From Gammaproteobacteria bacterium (lineage in GTDB: Bacteria > Pseudomonadota > Gammaproteobacteria > Ga0077536): 40,771 nt of DNA. The notes below the pieces were generated by a model. That model had not been told where the DNA came from. It saw only the letters and a list, made by a program, of their open reading frames with translations, and did no database searches. Below, in pieces: positions 11,115-17,177 of the stretch. Numbering within the stretch: the first letter of the stretch is position 1; every line of letters begins with the position of its first letter. Both the position numbers and the translations under genes were made by a program. The DNA lies in NCBI GenBank assembly GCA_016191285.1, contig JACPPA010000011.1, forward strand, positions 1 to 40,771, in the 5' to 3' direction.

Positions 11115-11411
11115 TCTCGCGTTCTCTCCTCAGTGGACGTACGCCGCGCCTACTATTTTTCAAACTGAACGGAAGCGGCCGCATTCGACGCTTTGTGGGT
11201 TCGCAATTGCGCGGGCTAGCCGGCACTGGCCCAGGCTGTGTGAAAACGTGGATTCGAATGTCGCACGCGGTCGCTCAGCGATACTGAGTTTCGCGCAGCA
11301 ACTGGCGTCGAACAAGGCCAATGACCACTATCGGCCGAGAGTGTGTGAAAACGCAAAAATTCGGCGCCGCTCCGAAAAAATTCCTCACGCGATATTTATT
11401 AGTGGCTCAAT
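11115..11411. other. Spacer between the CocE hydrolase and the IS5-type element
   Basis: No gene seen. The words TGTGTGAAAACG occur twice (near 11238 and 11341), possibly old IS-associated remnants. The promoter of the CocE-like gene should lie within the first hundred bases. Confidence 0.35.
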
Positions 11412-11415
11412 CTAA

Positions 11416-12606
11416 GGAAGCTCTGCAAAAGTCTGTTTATCGGGAGGGAACTTTAAATCGGAGCAGACGATCGGATCGATTACCTGCAATGACGAGTTCG
11501 GAGACGAAGATGAAGCAACTGACCTTGGGCACGGGCTTCGAGAAGTACGGGAAGACGACGCGCCGAGAACAGTTTCTGTTGGAGATGGATAAGGTCGTGC
11601 CGTGGCGCAAGCTGTGTGCGCTGATTGAGCCGGTGTATTCGAACGGGTCGGAGGGACGCCCGCCGAAAGAGTTGGAGTTGGAGTTGATGCTGCGGGTGTA
11701 TTTTCTACAGCGGTGGTTCAATCTGTCCGATCCCGGGGTTGAGGAAGCGTTGTATGACTCACCAGCGATGCAGCGGTTTGTCGGCATTGATCTCGGGCAC
11801 TCGCCGGTGCCGGACGAATCGACGGTGCTACGCTTCCGTCATCTGCTGGAAACACATGAGTTAGGCGCGCGTGTGTTCGAGCGGGTGCAGGACTATTTGG
11901 AAGCCCATGGCATCAAAGTCGGTACCGGGACGATCGTTGACGCGACAATTATCAATGCGCCACCCTCGACCAAGAACCAAGACCGTAGTCGCGAGCCCGA
12001 GATGCATCGGACGAAGAAGGGTAACCAATGGGATTTCGGGATGAAGGCGCACCTTGGCGTCGACAGTCGGAGCAAGATTATTCATACGGTGGTGGCGGGC
12101 GGCGAACGTGCACGATTCAGTCTGCTTACCCGACTTGCTGCATGGCGCGGAGACGCGAGTCTGGGGTGACTCGGCCTATCAGGGTCAGGGCGATGTCCTA
12201 CACGAACACGCGCCTGCGGCCCAAGATTTCACGAATCGACGCTACCGTCGTAAAGGCGTGGTCAACGAAGTTGAACGGGCAAAGAACCAAACCAAGTCGA
12301 GCGTACGTGCTAAAGTTGAGCATCCGTTTCTGCTCATCAAGCGCCTCTTCGGCTTCGCCAAGACGCGCTATCGAGGGCTCGCGAAAAATGCGCATCGATT
12401 ATTGGTGACGTGCGCGTTGTCCAATCTCTATCTAGTGCGGCGCCGGCTACTACGATTGGTCGAGGCATAGTCCTGTCTGAAATCTGGAACATCAGGCAGC
12501 GGCGGCGCAAACCTCGCACAGAATCGCTGCATTTCGGCATCCTCATGCCGTGATTCCACTGAATCAGCCAACATCACGCTCGCATCGTTAGCTTTTCAGA
12601 CCTTCC
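11416..12606 (+). mobile_element. IS5-family insertion sequence, complete with ends and CTAA target duplication
   Basis: Left end GGAAGCTCTGCAAAAG starts at 11416; the complement of the right end, GGAAGGTCTGAAAAGC, ends at 12606. The ends align with one substitution and one gap. CTAA flanks both sides (11412-11415 and 12607-12610), the target duplication typical of the IS5 group. Total length is 1191 bp, as expected for that group. The single transposase gene inside is frameshifted. The right end lies 12 bp upstream of the -35 box of the next operon. Confidence 0.88.
11510..12470 (+). pseudogene. IS5-family transposase, frameshifted
   Basis: Starts MKQLTLGTGFEKYGKTTRRE at 11510 after GGAGA. 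The N-terminal DUF772 region (LELELMLRVYFLQRWFNLSD) and first DDE aspartate (GTIVDATII) are in frame 1. Near 12095 the frame changes by one: after SKIIHTVVA the protein continues only in the other frame with AANVHDSVCLPDLLHG, the second aspartate in VWGDSAYQG, and the glutamate in KVEHPFLLIKRLFG. It ends at 12470. The length change fits loss of two bases or gain of one. A programmed shift is possible, but no slippery heptamer is evident, so I treat it as inactive. Confidence 0.85.
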
Positions 12607-12618
12607 CTAATTTGTTAC

Positions 12619-12648
12619 TTGACATGCAGGTTATTACCTGCCTATTCT
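12619..12648 (+). promoter_or_regulatory. Promoter of the small ORF-ArsR-SRPBCC-DUF899 operon
   Basis: Perfect -35 TTGACA (12619-12624), 18-nt spacer, -10 TATTCT (12643-12648). The spacer is almost entirely filled by a palindrome (operator 1), the classic arrangement for a repressor that blocks RNA polymerase. The predicted transcript starts near 12655, about 70 nt before the first start codon. Confidence 0.75.
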
Positions 12649-12672
12649 TCAATCATGCAGGTATAAACCTGC
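12626..12672. promoter_or_regulatory. Two tandem palindromic operators
   Basis: GCAGGTTATTACCTGC (12626-12641) and GCAGGTATAAACCTGC (12657-12672) share the 6-bp arms GCAGGT/ACCTGC around a 4-bp AT-rich centre, and both are preceded by AT. Centres are 31 bp apart, about three helical turns, so two dimers would sit on the same face. The most likely ligand is the ArsR-family protein encoded 216 bp downstream (autoregulation, inference). Confidence 0.75.
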
Positions 12673-12726
12673 ATTTAAATAACCCTGATAACTGTGAGTT
12701 TCTACAACCAACTGAGGTAAGCAACC

Positions 12727-12843
12727 ATGAAAAATCGAATTGACGAAACAATCGCGTCAATCATTTGCGGCTTGGCAGAGCTCGCCATGTGGGGGTCGTT
12801 CGTCGGCTACCTCGCGACCAAGCATTTGCCGCCGATCGTTTGA
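12727..12843 (+). CDS. Putative 38-aa membrane microprotein, first gene of the ArsR operon
   Basis: ATG at 12727 follows GAGGT with 8-nt spacing, well placed behind the operon promoter. The 38 residues read MKNRIDETIASIICGLAEL then AMWGSFVGYLATKHLPPIV. Residues about 9-31 form one hydrophobic stretch with small residues, compatible with a single membrane-spanning helix; charged residues flank it. No family is recognised. It ends 44 nt before the chosen ArsR start, or 2 nt before an in-frame TTG at 12846. It may be a co-regulated small membrane protein or a leader peptide for translational coupling. Confidence 0.55.
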   Translation: MKNRIDETIASIICGLAELAMWGSFVGYLATKHLPPIV

Positions 12844-12887
12844 AGTTGAGCACAGCACGGAGCAAGCGCGTTCCTTCGCCGGCTGCG

Positions 12888-13211
12888 ATGAAGGAGATCG
12901 ATAAGGTGTTTAAGGCACTGGCTGATCCGAGTCGTCGCGAGTTGATTGACCGACTGCACGCCAAGAACGGGCAGACGCTCAGTGAGCTCTGCGCGGGATT
13001 GGACATGGCGCGGCAGTCGGTCACGCAACACTTAGGGTTGCTTGAAGAAGCGAACCTCATCTCCGTTCAGTGGCAGGGGCGGGACAAGCTGCATTACTTC
13101 AACCCCGTGCCCATCCACGAGATTTACGAACGCTGGATTCGCAAATTCGAGCGACAGCGCCTCGACGCTTTGCATGACTTCAAAACCAAACTCGAAGGGA
13201 AATTACGATGA
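12888..13211 (+). CDS. ArsR-family winged-helix transcriptional regulator
   Basis: A 107-aa regulator. MKEIDKVFKALADPSRRELI is the hallmark N-terminus; the HTH (TLSELCAGLDMARQSVTQHL) and wing (LISVQWQGRDKLHYFNP) follow. There are no metal-binding cysteine boxes, so this belongs to the subgroup paired with SRPBCC proteins rather than metal sensors. The start at 12888 fits homologues but lacks a strong ribosome binding site; an in-frame TTG at 12846 is an alternative. Its stop overlaps the next gene by 4 bp (ATGA), so the two are translationally coupled. It probably represses its own operon through the tandem palindromes. Confidence 0.9.
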   Translation: MKEIDKVFKALADPSRRELIDRLHAKNGQTLSELCAGLDMARQSVTQHLGLLEEANLISVQWQGRDKLHYFNPVPIHEIYERWIRKFERQRLDALHDFKTKLEGKLR

Positions 13212-13645
13212 GTAATGGCAAATTCGTGTACGTCACCTACATCGCGACGACGACGCACAAGGTGTGGGATGCGCTGATTAAAGGCGAGTTAACGCGACAG
13301 TATTGGAATCACGAGAACGTGACGGACTGGACACCAGGGGCGAAGTGGGCGTTAGTTGCGGACGATGACAAGCGCACTGTGAGACACGTCGGCAAGGTGC
13401 TGGAATGTGTGCCGCACAAGCGTCTCGCGATGACTTGGGGGGATCCCGCCGACGCGGCTGACGAATCTACGCATTCGCGCGTCGCCATTGATATCGAGAC
13501 GGTGGGCAAAATGGTTCGTTTAACCGTCACACACGAAAATCTCTCAGTAGACATGCAGCGTCGAATTACCAAGGGCTGGCCGCGTGTGCTCGCGAGCTTG
13601 AAATCGTTCTTGGAAACGGGAATCCCATTAGATACCTGGGCATAA
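13208..13645 (+). CDS. SRPBCC/AHSA1 (START-like) domain protein
   Basis: A 145-aa protein with one START-like ligand-binding fold. FVYVTYIATTTHKVWDALIK, then TRQYWNHENVTDWTPGAKWA and the terminal helix WPRVLASLKSFLETG are typical for AHSA1-type SRPBCC proteins encoded next to ArsR regulators. It may bind a hydrophobic ligand; its exact role is unknown. ATG overlaps the arsR stop by 4 bp. DUF899 follows after 39 bp, preceded by its own GGAGAG. The ArsR-SRPBCC-DUF899 order is a recurrent arrangement in bacteria as I recall it. Confidence 0.88.
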   Translation: MSNGKFVYVTYIATTTHKVWDALIKGELTRQYWNHENVTDWTPGAKWALVADDDKRTVRHVGKVLECVPHKRLAMTWGDPADAADESTHSRVAIDIETVGKMVRLTVTHENLSVDMQRRITKGWPRVLASLKSFLETGIPLDTWA

Positions 13646-13684
13646 ATTCGCTCGCTTGCGAGCATTAACCACTAGGAGAGAATC

Positions 13685-14458
13685 ATGGACAGCAACAAAG
13701 CGAACGACACGCATCAGCACAAAGAATCACACGGAGTGAAGGCGCCACCGATCGTGTCGCCGGAGCTCTGGGAAGCTGCGCTCGAGCAGATGCTCGTGAA
13801 AGAAAAAGCGTTTGTGCGCGCACGCGACGCGCTGGCCGCCGAACGCCGGCGGATGCCGTGGATGGCCGTCGAGAAGCCATACGAATTCGAGGGTCCGCAC
13901 GGAAAGGTGAGTCTGCGCGATCTATTCGAAGGGCGCCGGCAGTTGATCATTTATCGCGCGTTCTTCGAGCCTGGCGTGTTCGGCTGGCCCGAGCATGCGT
14001 GCCGCGGCTGCTCTTTAGGCGCCGATCAAGTCACCCACCTGGCCCACCTCAACGCGCGTGATACCACGCTCGCGTACGCCTCGCGCGCACCGCAGAGAGA
14101 TATCGAGCGCTTAAAGGCACGCATGGGATGGAAGATGCCGTGGTACACCATCACCGACAGTTTTGACGCGGACTTCGGCGTGGACGAGTGGCACGGCCAC
14201 AATGTATTCATTCACGACGGTGGCAAGGTGTTCCGGACCTATCTCATCAACACCCGCGGCGACGAGGCGATGGGGACGACGTGGAGCTACCTCGATATTA
14301 CGCCCCTAGGCCGTCAGGAAACTTGGGAGGACTCACCAACGGATTACCCCCAGACCCCCCCATACAAATGGTGGAACTGGCACGACAACTACGACACTGA
14401 GGCCACGCCTAACCCGAAGTGGGTCGCGGTGTTGTCCGCCGCCGGAGAAGCCAACTAG
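13685..14458 (+). CDS. DUF899 (thioredoxin-like) family protein
   Basis: A 257-aa cytoplasmic protein of the DUF899 family, which adopts a thioredoxin-like fold. Recognisable are LVKEKAFVRARDALAAERRR, MPWMAVEKPYEFEGPHG, the cysteine pair in HACRGCSLGADQV, WYTITDSFDADFGVDEWHG, and the late FRTYLINTRGDEAMGTTWSY block. Two close cysteines suggest a redox role, but no activity is established. It is the last gene of the ArsR operon; a strong hairpin lies about 160 bp downstream (14621-14654). Confidence 0.9.
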   Translation: MDSNKANDTHQHKESHGVKAPPIVSPELWEAALEQMLVKEKAFVRARDALAAERRRMPWMAVEKPYEFEGPHGKVSLRDLFEGRRQLIIYRAFFEPGVFGWPEHACRGCSLGADQVTHLAHLNARDTTLAYASRAPQRDIERLKARMGWKMPWYTITDSFDADFGVDEWHGHNVFIHDGGKVFRTYLINTRGDEAMGTTWSYLDITPLGRQETWEDSPTDYPQTPPYKWWNWHDNYDTEATPNPKWVAVLSAAGEAN

Positions 14459-14816
14459 CGAAAGTGCGGTACATAGACAAAAGCATTACTGAGGCTGCGT
14501 ATTTGGCGCGTCTCACGGCTGTGCCAAAATTCGCGAGTAGCAATAGAAGATTTGCTAAAAACGAGCAGTGTGCAGAAAAGTTTGATGGCTTCAGGGGATT
14601 TTTTGCTGAGTGTACTACGTCGCCAGCAAGCCGCCTTCGAGCGGTTTGCTGGCGTCTCGAAACCTAACCTTTTCGGGACGATTCAGGCGGCCGCTTTACG
14701 GCAACGAGATCGAGTAGCTGAAATTCCGTACTTGGCCGATCAGAGCCCCCGCGATAGTCACAACAATAAAACCTCCGTGTGTCACAAACGACTCTTTAGG
14801 ATTGACCATCCGCGAT
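14459..14816. other. Gene-free stretch with one strong hairpin
   Basis: Convergent intergenic region between DUF899 (+) and the BrnA-like antitoxin (-). The only clear structure is the hairpin at 14621-14654. A 102-codon open frame across it (14552-14860) shows no family motif and no ribosome binding site. Confidence 0.4.
14621..14654 (+). terminator. 14-bp stem hairpin, possible operon terminator
   Basis: CGCCAGCAAGCCGC (14621-14634) pairs with GCGGTTTGCTGGCG (14641-14654) over 14 bp with one G-U pair and a 6-nt loop (CTTCGA). A short CCTTTT follows about 15 nt later, so it is not a textbook rho-independent terminator. It may end the ArsR operon or serve both converging transcripts. Confidence 0.5.
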
Positions 14817-15068
14817 TTACTTTGGTGTGGCTATGGTCTGTTCGAGAGTTTCTCGAATGAAGCTTGTATAAGGGATCCCGCGCGCCTTTGCCCCGGCCTT
14901 CACTGCCGCCAGCAACGGTTTCGGTACGCGCATGTTGATCTGTTCGTCCTTCTTCTCGAATTCAAACCGCGTTGGTTTAAATTGCGAAAAATCTAGGTTA
15001 GATAAATCTTGGGCAAGAAACGCCTCAGCTTGCTTATCGGTTTTGAGGCGCGGTACTTTCTTTTTCAT
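14817..15068 (-). CDS. BrnA/CopG-type antitoxin, toxin partner truncated
   Basis: An 83-aa antitoxin. The N-terminal half (RLKTDKQAEAFLAQDLSNLD) is the toxin-binding segment with the usual DLS-LD motif; the C-terminal half EQINMRVPKPLLAAVKAGAK then ARGIPYTSFIRETLEQ is a ribbon-helix-helix DNA-binding domain. The gene follows an AAGGAG inside the coding end of a BrnT-like toxin remnant on the same strand, whose reading frame it overlaps by 35 bp. With the toxin cut, it is an orphan antitoxin that could still bind DNA or neutralise a toxin elsewhere. Confidence 0.85.
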   Translation of the reverse strand: MKKKVPRLKTDKQAEAFLAQDLSNLDFSQFKPTRFEFEKKDEQINMRVPKPLLAAVKAGAKARGIPYTSFIRETLEQTIATPK

Positions 15069-15280: not shown

Positions 15281-15640
15281 CTAAGTGCTTACCTCAACCC
15301 CGCGCCAGAACGCGACATAGCCCTCGATATTCTTCGCTGCATCCTTGGTCGCCGGATAAAACCAGCACGCGTCGCGATTGACCTTGCCGTCGACCACCAC
15401 ATCGTAATAACTCGCGGTCCCTTTCCAGCCGCACTCGCGGTCCCTTTCCAGCCGCACACCGTGTGCGTGTCGCTGGCTTGCACATAGGTGCGATTTAAAG
15501 TCTCGGGTGGAAAATAAATATTGCCTTCGACCGTTTCAAATACCGCTGACTCGGCGAGCCTAGTGTGCGGTGCCGGCTCACGCTCGCCACAATAGACACC
15601 TTAACTGCCGAGAGACGGTCATCGACCCCATCCGGACTCT
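15281..15640 (-). pseudogene. DUF427 family protein, frameshifted by a 23-bp tandem duplication
   Basis: The frame RLAESAVFETVEGNIYFPPE, then YVQASDTHTVCGWKGTAS is a DUF427 domain (LAES---, -YFPP, SDTHTVC-WKGTASY). A 23-bp unit is present twice in tandem (15410-15432 and 15433-15455), which duplicates the codons for GWKGTAS and shifts the frame. The rest of the domain (YYDVVVDGKVNRDACWFYPA, then IEGYVAFWRGVEV) is only readable in the next frame and stops at 15281. Further upstream an ES-W and CGER stretch with stops suggests more decay. Function of DUF427 is unknown. Confidence 0.75.
15287..15434 (-). repeat. 148-bp segmental duplication, copy 1 (copy 2 at 16516-16663)
   Basis: This 3' piece of the DUF427 gene recurs at 16516-16663 in the same orientation with one substitution noted (TTACCTC versus TTACTTC). 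Copy 1 belongs to its original gene; copy 2 is attached to the nitroreductase gene. Spacing between copies is 1229 bp. Confidence 0.9.
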
Positions 15641-15781: not shown

Positions 15782-16069
15782 CTAAACCCGTTCCAATCGC
15801 CTCACCTTAATCGTACCGGAGCGGCGCTGCACCTGGGCCAGGTCATAGGCAACCTGCATTCGCAACCACACTTCAGCGCTGCCGCCGAACGCTTTCGACA
15901 ACCGCACGGCCATTTCTGCGGAGATATTGGCGTCACCGTTGACGAGGTTATTCAACGCCTGCCGGCTGACGCCAAGCGCCTTTGCGCCCGCCGTCACCGT
16001 CAACCCTAACGGCTCGAGGCAATCGTGGCGTACAGAGTGACCAGGATGCGGCGGATTCTTCATGGTCAT
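15782..16069 (-). CDS. higA: HigA-family antitoxin (XRE helix-turn-helix)
   Basis: A 95-aa antitoxin. It opens with NPPHPGHSVRHDCLEPLGLT, the signature of HigA/VapI proteins, followed by the HTH AGAKALGVSRQALNNLVNGD and the conserved ISAEMAVRLSKAFGGSAEVW block. AGGAGG lies 8 nt before the ATG at 16069. It follows higB by 12 bp on the same strand. HigA neutralises HigB and represses the promoter, here probably through the palindrome upstream of higB. Confidence 0.92.
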   Translation of the reverse strand: MTMKNPPHPGHSVRHDCLEPLGLTVTAGAKALGVSRQALNNLVNGDANISAEMAVRLSKAFGGSAEVWLRMQVAYDLAQVQRRSGTIKVRRLERV

Positions 16070-16081
16070 GGTGACAGCCTC

Positions 16082-16363
16082 CTAGTGATAATCCAGATAA
16101 TCAACATCAAAAACGTCGCCAGCGCCATCGCAGCGAAAAATTACGCGCCAATTCGCGGCTATGGTCACGCTCCAAAAGCCTTTCAGATCGCCGCGCAACG
16201 GGTGCAATCGATAACCGGGTAAGTCCATGTCCTGCGGCTGCATGATTTGATTAAGTCGCGCCAGCACCCGCGTAATCTTGTCGACCTGTGCGACGGGTAA
16301 ACGCCGTCGGTCGTCATCTTCAAACAGGCGTCGCAAGCCACGGTGCCGAAAACTTTGAATCAC
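16082..16363 (-). CDS. higB: HigB-family mRNA interferase toxin
   Basis: A 93-aa RelE/HigB-like toxin that cleaves mRNA on the ribosome. VIQSFRHRGLRRLFEDDDRR is the standard N-terminus; the core LPGYRLHPLRGDLKGFWSVT and end NWRVIFRC then DVDYLDYH are intact, with the basic and histidine residues expected. I place the start at GTG 16363, where family homology begins, instead of ATG 16399, because the latter overlaps the -35 box. With that start the transcript is nearly leaderless. higA follows immediately. Confidence 0.9.
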   Translation of the reverse strand: MIQSFRHRGLRRLFEDDDRRRLPVAQVDKITRVLARLNQIMQPQDMDLPGYRLHPLRGDLKGFWSVTIAANWRVIFRCDGAGDVFDVDYLDYH

Positions 16364-16370
16364 AATAATG

Positions 16371-16433
16371 AATTTAGAGTGACAAGCATTCGTTGTCAAA
16401 ATTAAAATCTTGGAACTGGTCTCCGAGACCAGT
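16371..16433 (-). promoter_or_regulatory. higBA promoter with upstream palindrome
   Basis: On the minus strand, -35 TTGACA (16399-16394), 17-nt spacer, -10 TAAATT (16376-16371); the GTG start follows only 7 nt later. Upstream lies ACTGGTCTC-C-GAGACCAGT (16415-16433), a 9-bp perfect palindrome with one central base, a plausible HigA operator. Confidence 0.7.
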
Positions 16434-16515
16434 AAGTCCTTGGTTTTTATGGACCGCTGCGCTCAGACAATGTCTGCTAAACGAACTCGTAGTATTTGCA
16501 AATGACCGACTAGGC

Positions 16516-16663
16516 GCTTACTTCAACCCCGCGCCAGAACGCGACATAGCCCTCGATATTCTTCGCTGCATCCTTGGTCGCCGGATAAAACCAGCACGCG
16601 TCGCGATTGACCTTGCCGTCGACCACCACATCGTAATAACTCGCGGTCCCTTTCCAGCCGCAC
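16516..16663 (-). repeat. 148-bp segmental duplication, copy 2
   Basis: Near-identical to 15287-15434. It encodes the C-terminal end of a DUF427 protein, but here it follows the truncated nitroreductase gene in a different reading frame. The DUF427 stop (CTA on plus) at 16510-16512 is also preserved. Confidence 0.9.
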
Positions 16664-17177
16664 CCGCGTAACCATACCAAAATAGTCCCACCGTGAACTC
16701 ACTCGGCGACGCACCGATCAGGGTCATGAAACGCGGGTCGCGCGTGACCTTTCCGGTTCCCCATTTCATACCGATGCCGCGCGCCCATAGCGTCAACATC
16801 AAATTCTGGATGGCGCAGCAACAAGCCGCGTAATCTTCGCGCTCCCGATTCGCGTCCTCGCTGGTTGCACAGGTCACGGCCAACCAGCCGGGCATCGCGC
16901 GCCAGCGTTGCAATTTGCTGGCCGCTGCCTGGTCTCCACTTTTCTGACGTACCAGTTCGGCGTTCAATTCGGCGATCCGCGCCCCACAGTCGGGGCTGAT
17001 TAGGTAAAACCGCCAGGGTTCGGTATGGTGATGATTGGGTGCCCATCGTGCCTGCTCGATCGCTTCGCGCACAGTTTCGGGCGCTGGCACTTCCGGCGTA
17101 AATTCATGGATGGTGCGTCGACTCCGGATTACGCTGTCGACGGCTGCGATCTCGGCTCGAGTAAGTTTCAGGATCAT
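16518..17177 (-). CDS. Nitroreductase family protein with replaced C-terminus
   Basis: FMN-dependent nitroreductase fold, closest in feel to the YdjA type. VIRSRRTIHEFTPEVPAPET, EQARWAPNHHHTEPWRFYLI, YAACCCAIQNLMLTLWARGI and MKWGTGKVTRD are canonical. The ORF runs from ATG 17177 to 16518, but true homology stops at VGLFWYGYAG near 16664. The last 48 or so codons read a duplicated DUF427 piece out of frame and give junk (RPRMQRRISRAMSRSGAG). Only about 20-25 native residues are lost, so the enzyme might still fold; activity is doubtful. Upstream starts to 17255 are not conserved. It diverges from slt. Confidence 0.8.
   Translation of the reverse strand: MILKLTRAEIAAVDSVIRSRRTIHEFTPEVPAPETVREAIEQARWAPNHHHTEPWRFYLISPDCGARIAELNAELVRQKSGDQAAASKLQRWRAMPGWLAVTCATSEDANREREDYAACCCAIQNLMLTLWARGIGMKWGTGKVTRDPRFMTLIGASPSEFTVGLFWYGYAGAAGKGPRVITMWWSTARSIATRAGFIRRPRMQRRISRAMSRSGAGLK

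What the first reader, a model, noticed from the sequence alone, without database searches (positions are those of the whole stretch)
12619..12843. Tandem-operator promoter and an unannotated 38-aa membrane microprotein
Two GCAGGT-N4-ACCTGC palindromes, 31 bp apart, one inside the -35/-10 spacer, precede a 38-codon gene with a good ribosome binding site and a hydrophobic centre. It heads an ArsR-SRPBCC-DUF899 operon. A short co-regulated membrane peptide in this type of operon is not something I know to be described.
Basis: partly seen in the sequence, partly recalled or inferred. Interest (0 to 1): 0.6.

Follow-up and report, generated by a model that had tools for sequence, protein, structure and literature searches.

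The report
ArsR-controlled copy of lineage-specific membrane microprotein
A 38-amino-acid membrane peptide, one of an unnamed family so far found in only two related bacterial genera, sits directly behind the paired switch sites of an ArsR repressor, so it should be made whenever that repressor lets go of the DNA.

Summary
Two exact GCAGGT-N4-ACCTGC palindromes, 31 bp apart, are the only such sites in the 5.1 Mb genome; the first fills the -35/-10 spacer. They are very probably the ArsR repressor's own operators: 81 of 90 ArsR relatives carry a GCA-N10-TGC palindrome within 130 nt upstream of arsR, against 7 of 441 control stretches. Two recognition-helix residues also co-vary with two operator bases in all four combinations.

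The 38-aa ORF has no homolog in those 90 loci, so it is not a trait of that type of operon. It belongs to an unnamed single-helix microprotein family of the host lineage: 22 loci in 14 of 36 family genomes, all in two genera, four in this genome. Third codon positions vary most. Six of the 21 other copies lie directly behind a sensor kinase gene or its remnant, and nine carry another promoter box. The window copy has ArsR operators instead, and a glutamate where the other 21 have a small residue.

The wiring is well supported. The function is inferred: a membrane-partner modulator, with a toxin-like peptide as main rival.

The parts
12619..12624 (+). -35 hexamer TTGACA
12626..12641 (.). operator O1, GCAGGT-N4-ACCTGC, inside the -35/-10 spacer
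   Evidence: same position in ArsR relatives
12643..12648 (+). -10 hexamer TATTCT (18-bp spacer)
12657..12672 (.). operator O2, GCAGGT-N4-ACCTGC, about at the transcription start (inferred); also an 8-bp hairpin with its flanks if transcribed
12714..12718 (+). Shine-Dalgarno GAGGT, 8 nt before the start codon
   Evidence: sequence
12727..12843 (+). ORF38, single-helix membrane microprotein, family member
12888..13211 (+). ArsR-family repressor (HTH_20), recognition helix R42-Q-S44-V-T-Q47-H
13208..13645 (+). SRPBCC/AHSA1-domain protein, start overlaps arsR stop
   Evidence: directly behind arsR in 90 of 90 relatives
13685..14458 (+). DUF899 protein; not seen near any of 90 relatives' arsR
14622..14653 (+). 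13-bp hairpin about 160 nt after the DUF899 stop, possible end of the transcript (no T-run directly behind; the terminator scan did not list it)

Best explanation
The locus is an ArsR-repressed, self-regulated operon whose first gene is a recruited copy of a host-lineage microprotein. Well supported: the ArsR-family protein 12888-13211 binds O1, which would block RNA polymerase inside the -35/-10 spacer, and probably O2 near the transcription start, about three helical turns away on the same face. Strongly indicated: ORF38 encodes a real 38-aa protein, a single membrane helix, from a family whose other copies have other promoters, some of them behind an OmpR-type regulator plus hybrid kinase. 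In this genome one copy lies between the ArsR promoter and arsR, so whatever relieves ArsR (one near-invariant cysteine, C35, suggests a thiol-reactive or redox signal) switches on the peptide with SRPBCC and DUF899. Inferred: the peptide inserts in the inner membrane and modulates a larger membrane partner through its helix, adding a membrane output to the stress response. E18 in the helix suggests a partner or role changed from that of the other copies.
For: Operators: only exact sites in the genome; GCA-N10-TGC palindrome within 130 nt before arsR in 81 of 90 relatives against 7 of 441 control stretches, 73 of the 90 with TTGA.. within 12 nt 5'. Recognition code in the 81 typed loci: S44 with G at operator position 4 in 40 of 40, A/G44 with A in 41 of 41; Q47 with G at position 5 in 38 of 39, K47 with C in 42 of 42; all four combinations occur; the window fits (S, Q, GG). 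Family: eight places outside the window at E 2e-5 to 3e-3 with ORF38 alone as query; 22 loci in 14 of 36 family genomes with the profile, 9 of these not used to build it. Coding constraint: differences at codon positions 1/2/3 of .31/.25/.56 in four group A copies and .37/.34/.64 in the group holding ORF38; ORF38 against G003:C125 16 identical residues, 8.5 expected, reached in 0 of 2000 trials. One helix, residues 2-32, mean pLDDT 90.2. SD-like purine run before all eight 38-aa members.
Against: No expression data. The palindrome-repressor link is comparative, and related ArsR rows are not independent. ORF38 has no syntenic ortholog, so constraint on this copy itself is not shown: two of its three comparisons in its group give p .024 and .08 for identity, and against four group A copies third-position differences exceed the others only slightly (14/13/18, 13/14/22, 14/13/15, 16/17/20). 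E18 replaces a residue that is small in the other 21 members, which could mean decay. No partner protein is known.
Confidence: 0.62

Rival explanations
1. ORF38 and its relatives are stress-induced membrane-active peptides of the type I toxin kind (like TisB or DinQ), which depolarise or perturb the inner membrane when made.
For: Short, one predicted helix; several copies in some genomes with two tandem pairs, G000:C40 and G030:C34; lineage-limited. DinQ is a LexA-controlled 27-aa single-helix toxin (PMC3567139, passages read).
Against: No promoter-like site on the opposite strand in window 12450-14900 or in L166 7300-8400 (consensus scans only). Conserved synteny with a two-component system in several species, an invariant Trp and N-terminally extended 81-84-aa members are not typical of such toxins (recalled).
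Confidence: 0.2
2. The family gives feedback on its neighbouring kinase in the way MgrB does on PhoQ, and the ArsR-controlled copy connects the ArsR signal to that two-component system.
For: Six of 22 copies lie directly behind the kinase gene or its remnant, five of them with the regulator gene upstream of it; 11-bp direct-repeat boxes before all six and, in eight of the ten upstream regions laid out, a -10-like element at fixed spacing. MgrB is a 47-aa membrane inhibitor of PhoQ (PMC10576120, abstract and start of introduction).
Against: Sixteen of 22 copies are not behind that kinase as far as the DNA held shows. The kinase has no clear membrane segments (in five proteins at most one window above 1.6, in L166_9 inside its weak GAF match). 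G005 keeps the peptide beside a 142-residue kinase remnant with no regulator found at E 1e-40. Family genomes G010, G012, G019 and G020 have regulator relatives at 65-73% identity but no peptide found.
Confidence: 0.15
3. ORF38 is a leader ORF whose translation matters, for coupling to arsR, and its peptide does not.
For: arsR has no obvious SD before ATG 12888 and starts 44 nt after the ORF38 stop.
Against: The peptide is homologous to genes that stand alone elsewhere, and its similarity to the nearest one exceeds chance.
Confidence: 0.1
4. ORF38 is a neutral, decaying copy that happened to be caught between the promoter and arsR.
For: No ortholog at this place; E18 in the helix; lowest hydrophobicity of the family; a transposase with a broken frame lies just upstream.
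Against: Intact frame, start, SD, Trp, Pro and length of 38 aa; similarity to the G003:C125 copy well above chance.
Confidence: 0.15

Closest known systems
Self-regulated ArsR-SRPBCC (AHSA1) gene pairs
   Same: Palindrome in the -35/-10 spacer, arsR then SRPBCC (90 of 90 loci); two or more palindromes in 12 of 90, in three of them (L035, L037, L102) the second one downstream as here
   Different: A microprotein between operator and arsR, and DUF899 behind; neither seen in the 90. A first gene before arsR is itself not unique: in L045 and L073 an AHSA1-domain frame stands between operator and arsR, and L043, L047 and L051 look alike (by eye)
MgrB and related small regulators of a sensor kinase (SafA, UgtS)
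   Same: Under 50 aa for most copies, one membrane helix, linked to a two-component system in six of 22 copies
   Different: No sequence relation found in Pfam or NCBIfam; the kinase appears soluble; the window copy is under ArsR
DinQ / TisB type I toxins of E. coli
   Same: Short single-helix peptide under a stress repressor; dinQ lies in the arsR-gor region (PMC3567139, passages)
   Different: LexA control and antisense RNA; ORF38 is inside the ArsR transcription unit; no sequence comparison with DinQ or TisB was made beyond the family libraries

Membership tests
ArsR/SmtB family repressor | ArsR-type winged HTH domain | tested here: met
   HTH_20 50.5 bits against cut-off 27, HTH_5 24.7 against 22
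Metal-sensing subset of ArsR/SmtB | Paired cysteines in the alpha-3 region (recalled) | tested here: not met
   The window protein has one cysteine, C35, present in 90 of 91 rows; NF033788 metalloregulator score 53.9, just below its cut-off 55. Not filed here
Self-regulated ArsR-SRPBCC pair | Palindromic operator overlapping the promoter of the arsR unit | tested here: met
Self-regulated ArsR-SRPBCC pair | SRPBCC gene directly behind arsR | tested here: met
   13208-13645, overlap with the arsR stop; 90 of 90 relatives
Self-regulated ArsR-SRPBCC pair | ArsR protein binds the palindrome | not testable with these tools
   Only co-variation is shown
Unnamed microprotein family | Homologous core of about 38 residues, one helix, Trp and C-terminal Pro invariant in 22 of 22 | tested here: met
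   W22 and P36 in ORF38; homology from a single-sequence search
Unnamed microprotein family | Small residue (G, A or S) four before the Trp (a common trait, not part of the definition) | tested here: not met
   E18 in ORF38; small in the other 21 members
Unnamed microprotein family | Upstream box YNACAAW-N4-YAACAAW (a subgroup trait, not part of the definition) | tested here: not met
   Present with at most 1 mismatch in 9 of 22 members, absent in the window
MgrB-like kinase regulator | Binding to a membrane sensor kinase | not testable with these tools
   No interaction data; the neighbouring kinase looks soluble
Type I toxin | Antisense RNA antitoxin | tested here: inconclusive
   No opposite-strand promoter-like site; consensus scan only
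Type I toxin | Toxic when overproduced | not testable with these tools
   Needs an experiment

The most novel reading that the evidence does not exclude
A lineage-specific family of single-helix peptides acts as an interchangeable membrane output module: different copies are wired to different regulators (an OmpR-type two-component system, and here an ArsR repressor). The ArsR-wired copy has gained a buried glutamate that gives it a new partner or ion-coupled function.
Probability: 0.28. Interest if true: 0.68.

Novelty: new variant of a known kind. Interest (0 to 1): 0.52.

Why it matters
It turns a lone small ORF into a testable family of 22 loci, and offers a natural case of regulatory rewiring: one copy under a one-component repressor, others behind a two-component system. 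It also yields a two-residue, two-base recognition code for ArsR proteins of ArsR-SRPBCC pairs that can be tested by simple gel-shifts and used to predict their operators.

Tried and rejected
ORF38 as a conserved part of ArsR-SRPBCC operons: rejected, 0 of 90 (also tblastn of up to 700 nt upstream at E up to 10, where the best non-self hit was 13 residues, E 0.13). ORF38 as a member of a known family: none in Pfam, NCBIfam, PHROGs or solved structures; only weak single-member hits, e.g. VEGFR-2_TMD E 0.0034 and MgtS E 0.14. ORF38 on plasmids: one hit at E 8; a group A relative on plasmids or phages: none at E 1. Wider spread: in 369 class genomes only G000 and G001 match well; five other genomes match at E 0.003-0.007, judged chance; the order as held contains only this family. 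Structured RNA: no Rfam hit at gathering scores; the leader folds better than shuffles (z -3.0), explained by the O2 palindrome. Operator with its -35 in viral contigs: none. Other genomic sites of the two-component box: 4 exact against a control of 2 (both strands), not informative. Placing ORF38 on a tree: not resolved with 41 columns. Codon positions pooled over both groups.55/.51/.67, are blurred because the groups are one codon out of register there. An IS boundary beside the promoter: no terminal repeats found; the related copy at C40 covers window 11502-12445 only, the transposase part.

I also tested the AHSA1 frames and the QueE label.

Full report
1. Observation. The palindromes are the only exact GCAGGT-N4-ACCTGC sites in the 5,098,228-base genome; the reversed control pattern gives one, and 100 shuffles of the window give none. 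Allowing two mismatches raises counts to the control level, so the signal is in the exact pair. The downstream genes are an ArsR-family protein, an AHSA1/SRPBCC protein and a DUF899 protein.

2. The operators belong to ArsR. SRPBCC follows arsR in 90 of 90, DUF899 in 0 of 90 within the DNA held, and a GCA-N10-TGC palindrome with at least 5 of 6 arm pairs lies within 130 nt upstream in 81 of 90, against 7 of 441 control stretches. It typically fills the -35/-10 spacer, as O1 does. Twelve of 90 have two or more such palindromes: in nine the further copy lies upstream of the one in the spacer, in three (L035, L037, L102) downstream, as O2 does here. So a tandem arrangement is part of the range of these promoters.

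3. A recognition code. Sorting the 81 typed loci by the recognition helix (window R42-Q-S44-V-T-Q47-H) shows that residue 44 goes with operator position 4 (S with G, 40 of 40; A or G with A, 41 of 41) and residue 47 with position 5 (Q with G, 38 of 39; K with C, 42 of 42). All four combinations occur: STQ-GG 36 (plus one with GT in one arm), SSK-GC 3, A-K types with AC 39 (one with AT in one arm), ATQ/GTQ-AG 2 (helix columns). Nine loci were untyped (L034, L038, L043, L045, L047, L051, L073, L080, L098). In seven of them a site that fits the code was found on a second look: L045, L047, L051 and L080 with GG and L043 and L073 with AG, further upstream, and L098 with AC and one end mismatch. L034 has one damaged arm; L038, at 46% the least similar of the ten plasmid rows, has a different palindrome in that place. 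The rows are related, so the counts overstate independence, but assortment of the two positions in all four combinations is hard to get from ancestry alone. The window fits the code. C35 is kept in 90 of 91 rows and is the window protein's only cysteine, which argues against a classical paired-cysteine metal site.

4. ORF38 is not an operon trait but a lineage trait. No ORF38 homolog was found in the 90 loci at E 1e-3. Searching 36 genomes of the window's family with ORF38 alone gave eight other places at E 2e-5 to 3e-3 and five weaker ones. A profile of 13 sequences, ORF38 included (A2), found 22 loci in 14 of 36 genomes: 5 of 6 in the window's genus and 9 of 9 in one other genus, none in the other eight genera. 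Thirteen of the 22 built the profile, so only nine are new. The window's genome has four copies: C48 (this one), two in tandem on C40, and one on C19. In 369 class genomes only G000 and G001 matched well.

5. It is a protein. All eight 38-aa members have their own ATG and a purine-rich SD. Codon positions 1/2/3 differ .31/.25/.56 among four group A copies (those near the kinase; L159, L160, L161, L164) and .37/.34/.64 among ORF38, G003:C125, G001:C17 and own C19 (228 comparisons per position in each group). In a placement test the identity of ORF38 to G003:C125 was reached in 0 of 2000 trials, to G001:C17 at p .024, to C19 at p .08 (.0165 by BLOSUM score); against the four group A copies the third-position excess is small. 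AlphaFold2 with A2 gives one helix, residues 2-32, mean pLDDT 90.2. Trp is invariant in 22 of 22. The residue four before it is G, A or S in 21 of 22 and Glu in ORF38 alone.

6. Context of the family. In G000, G001, G003, G030 and G004 one copy lies directly behind an OmpR-type regulator and a GAF-PAS-HisKA-HATPase-REC hybrid kinase (Pfam for the G000 pair, the GAF match weak; positions; in G004 the kinase match is in two pieces). In G005 only a 142-residue kinase remnant was found, yet the peptide and its box are kept. That makes six of 22 copies; in a seventh, G032, a regulator fragment at the contig end lies beside the peptide. A convergent QueE-like radical-SAM gene lies on the other side in G000, G001, G003 and G004, and in G005 with another frame between (best matches are QueE profiles but below their cut-offs). 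The remaining copies have various neighbours. Nine of 22 members carry YNACAAW-N4-YAACAAW at -110 to -142 with at most one mismatch; shuffled upstream regions do so at .0017 each, but the motif was derived from these same sequences. In L159, L161, L164 and L166 the box overlaps the kinase stop codon, so part of its conservation may be due to that; in L162 it lies behind the stop. No box was found before the regulator genes (five loci). Of ten upstream regions laid out, eight align without gaps from the box to an ACA element and a YAGACT-like -10; L170 and L172 do not. The window has none of this; its promoter carries the ArsR operators.

7. Interpretation. The simplest history is that an ArsR operon with its promoter and a native microprotein gene came together in the window's lineage: no close ArsR relative was found in 95 related genomes (best E 3e-13, 39% identity). 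The result is an ArsR-derepressed microprotein. This wiring is well supported by comparison; the physiological role is not shown. I rank a modulator of a membrane partner first, a toxin-like peptide second, and keep MgrB-like feedback, a leader ORF and a decaying copy as rivals.

8. Literature. Searches for ArsR with SRPBCC and DUF899 gave 0 papers, ArsR family with AHSA1, operon and palindrom 0, ArsR with SRPBCC 2 and ArsR with AHSA1 1, none about such an operon by title and abstract start. DUF899 with thioredoxin gave 3, small membrane proteins with ArsR and operator 5 (at least 3 of 4 terms), and two searches on small proteins with two-component systems 24 (8 listed) and 4. A search for ArsR recognition-helix specificity listed nine papers, none on this code by title and abstract start. 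Apart from the two papers named next I saw listings only, and only open-licence PMC papers are held, so absence from print is not shown. DinQ (PMC3567139, passages) and MgrB (PMC10576120, abstract and start of introduction) are the closest functional parallels.

Noticed in passing
window 13011-13031 (recognition helix) with 12626-12672; loci L029-L118: Two-position recognition code of ArsR proteins in ArsR-SRPBCC pairs: residue 44 (S or A/G) with operator base 4 (G or A), residue 47 (Q or K) with base 5 (G or C), all four combinations seen.
   Followed up: yes
L166 7500-8160 (G000:C40) and L168 6700-7300 (G030:C34): Tandem pairs of the microprotein gene beside a QueE-like gene; the first C40 copy is followed by a terminator-like hairpin.
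   Followed up: partly
L045 2452-3000 and L073 2415-3000 (L043, L047, L051 look alike): In these ArsR loci the operator lies before an additional AHSA1-domain frame that stands between it and arsR.
   Followed up: partly
window 11321-12470 +: Transposase (DUF772/DDE) split into two overlapping frames just upstream of the operon, with a 72% identical relative at C40:93457-94396.
   Followed up: partly
window 14817-15068 - and 15782-16399 -: CopG-type antitoxin gene and a HTH_3 plus HigB-like toxin pair close behind the operon, suggesting a mobile or plastic region.
   Followed up: no
window 15281-15457 - and 16510-16680 -: Two near-identical C-terminal halves of a DUF427 (NTP_transf_9) protein, the second overlapping the 3' end of a nitroreductase frame.
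   Followed up: no
L160 4948-5370 (G005): Kinase gene reduced to a 142-residue remnant while the neighbouring microprotein and its upstream box are intact.
   Followed up: partly
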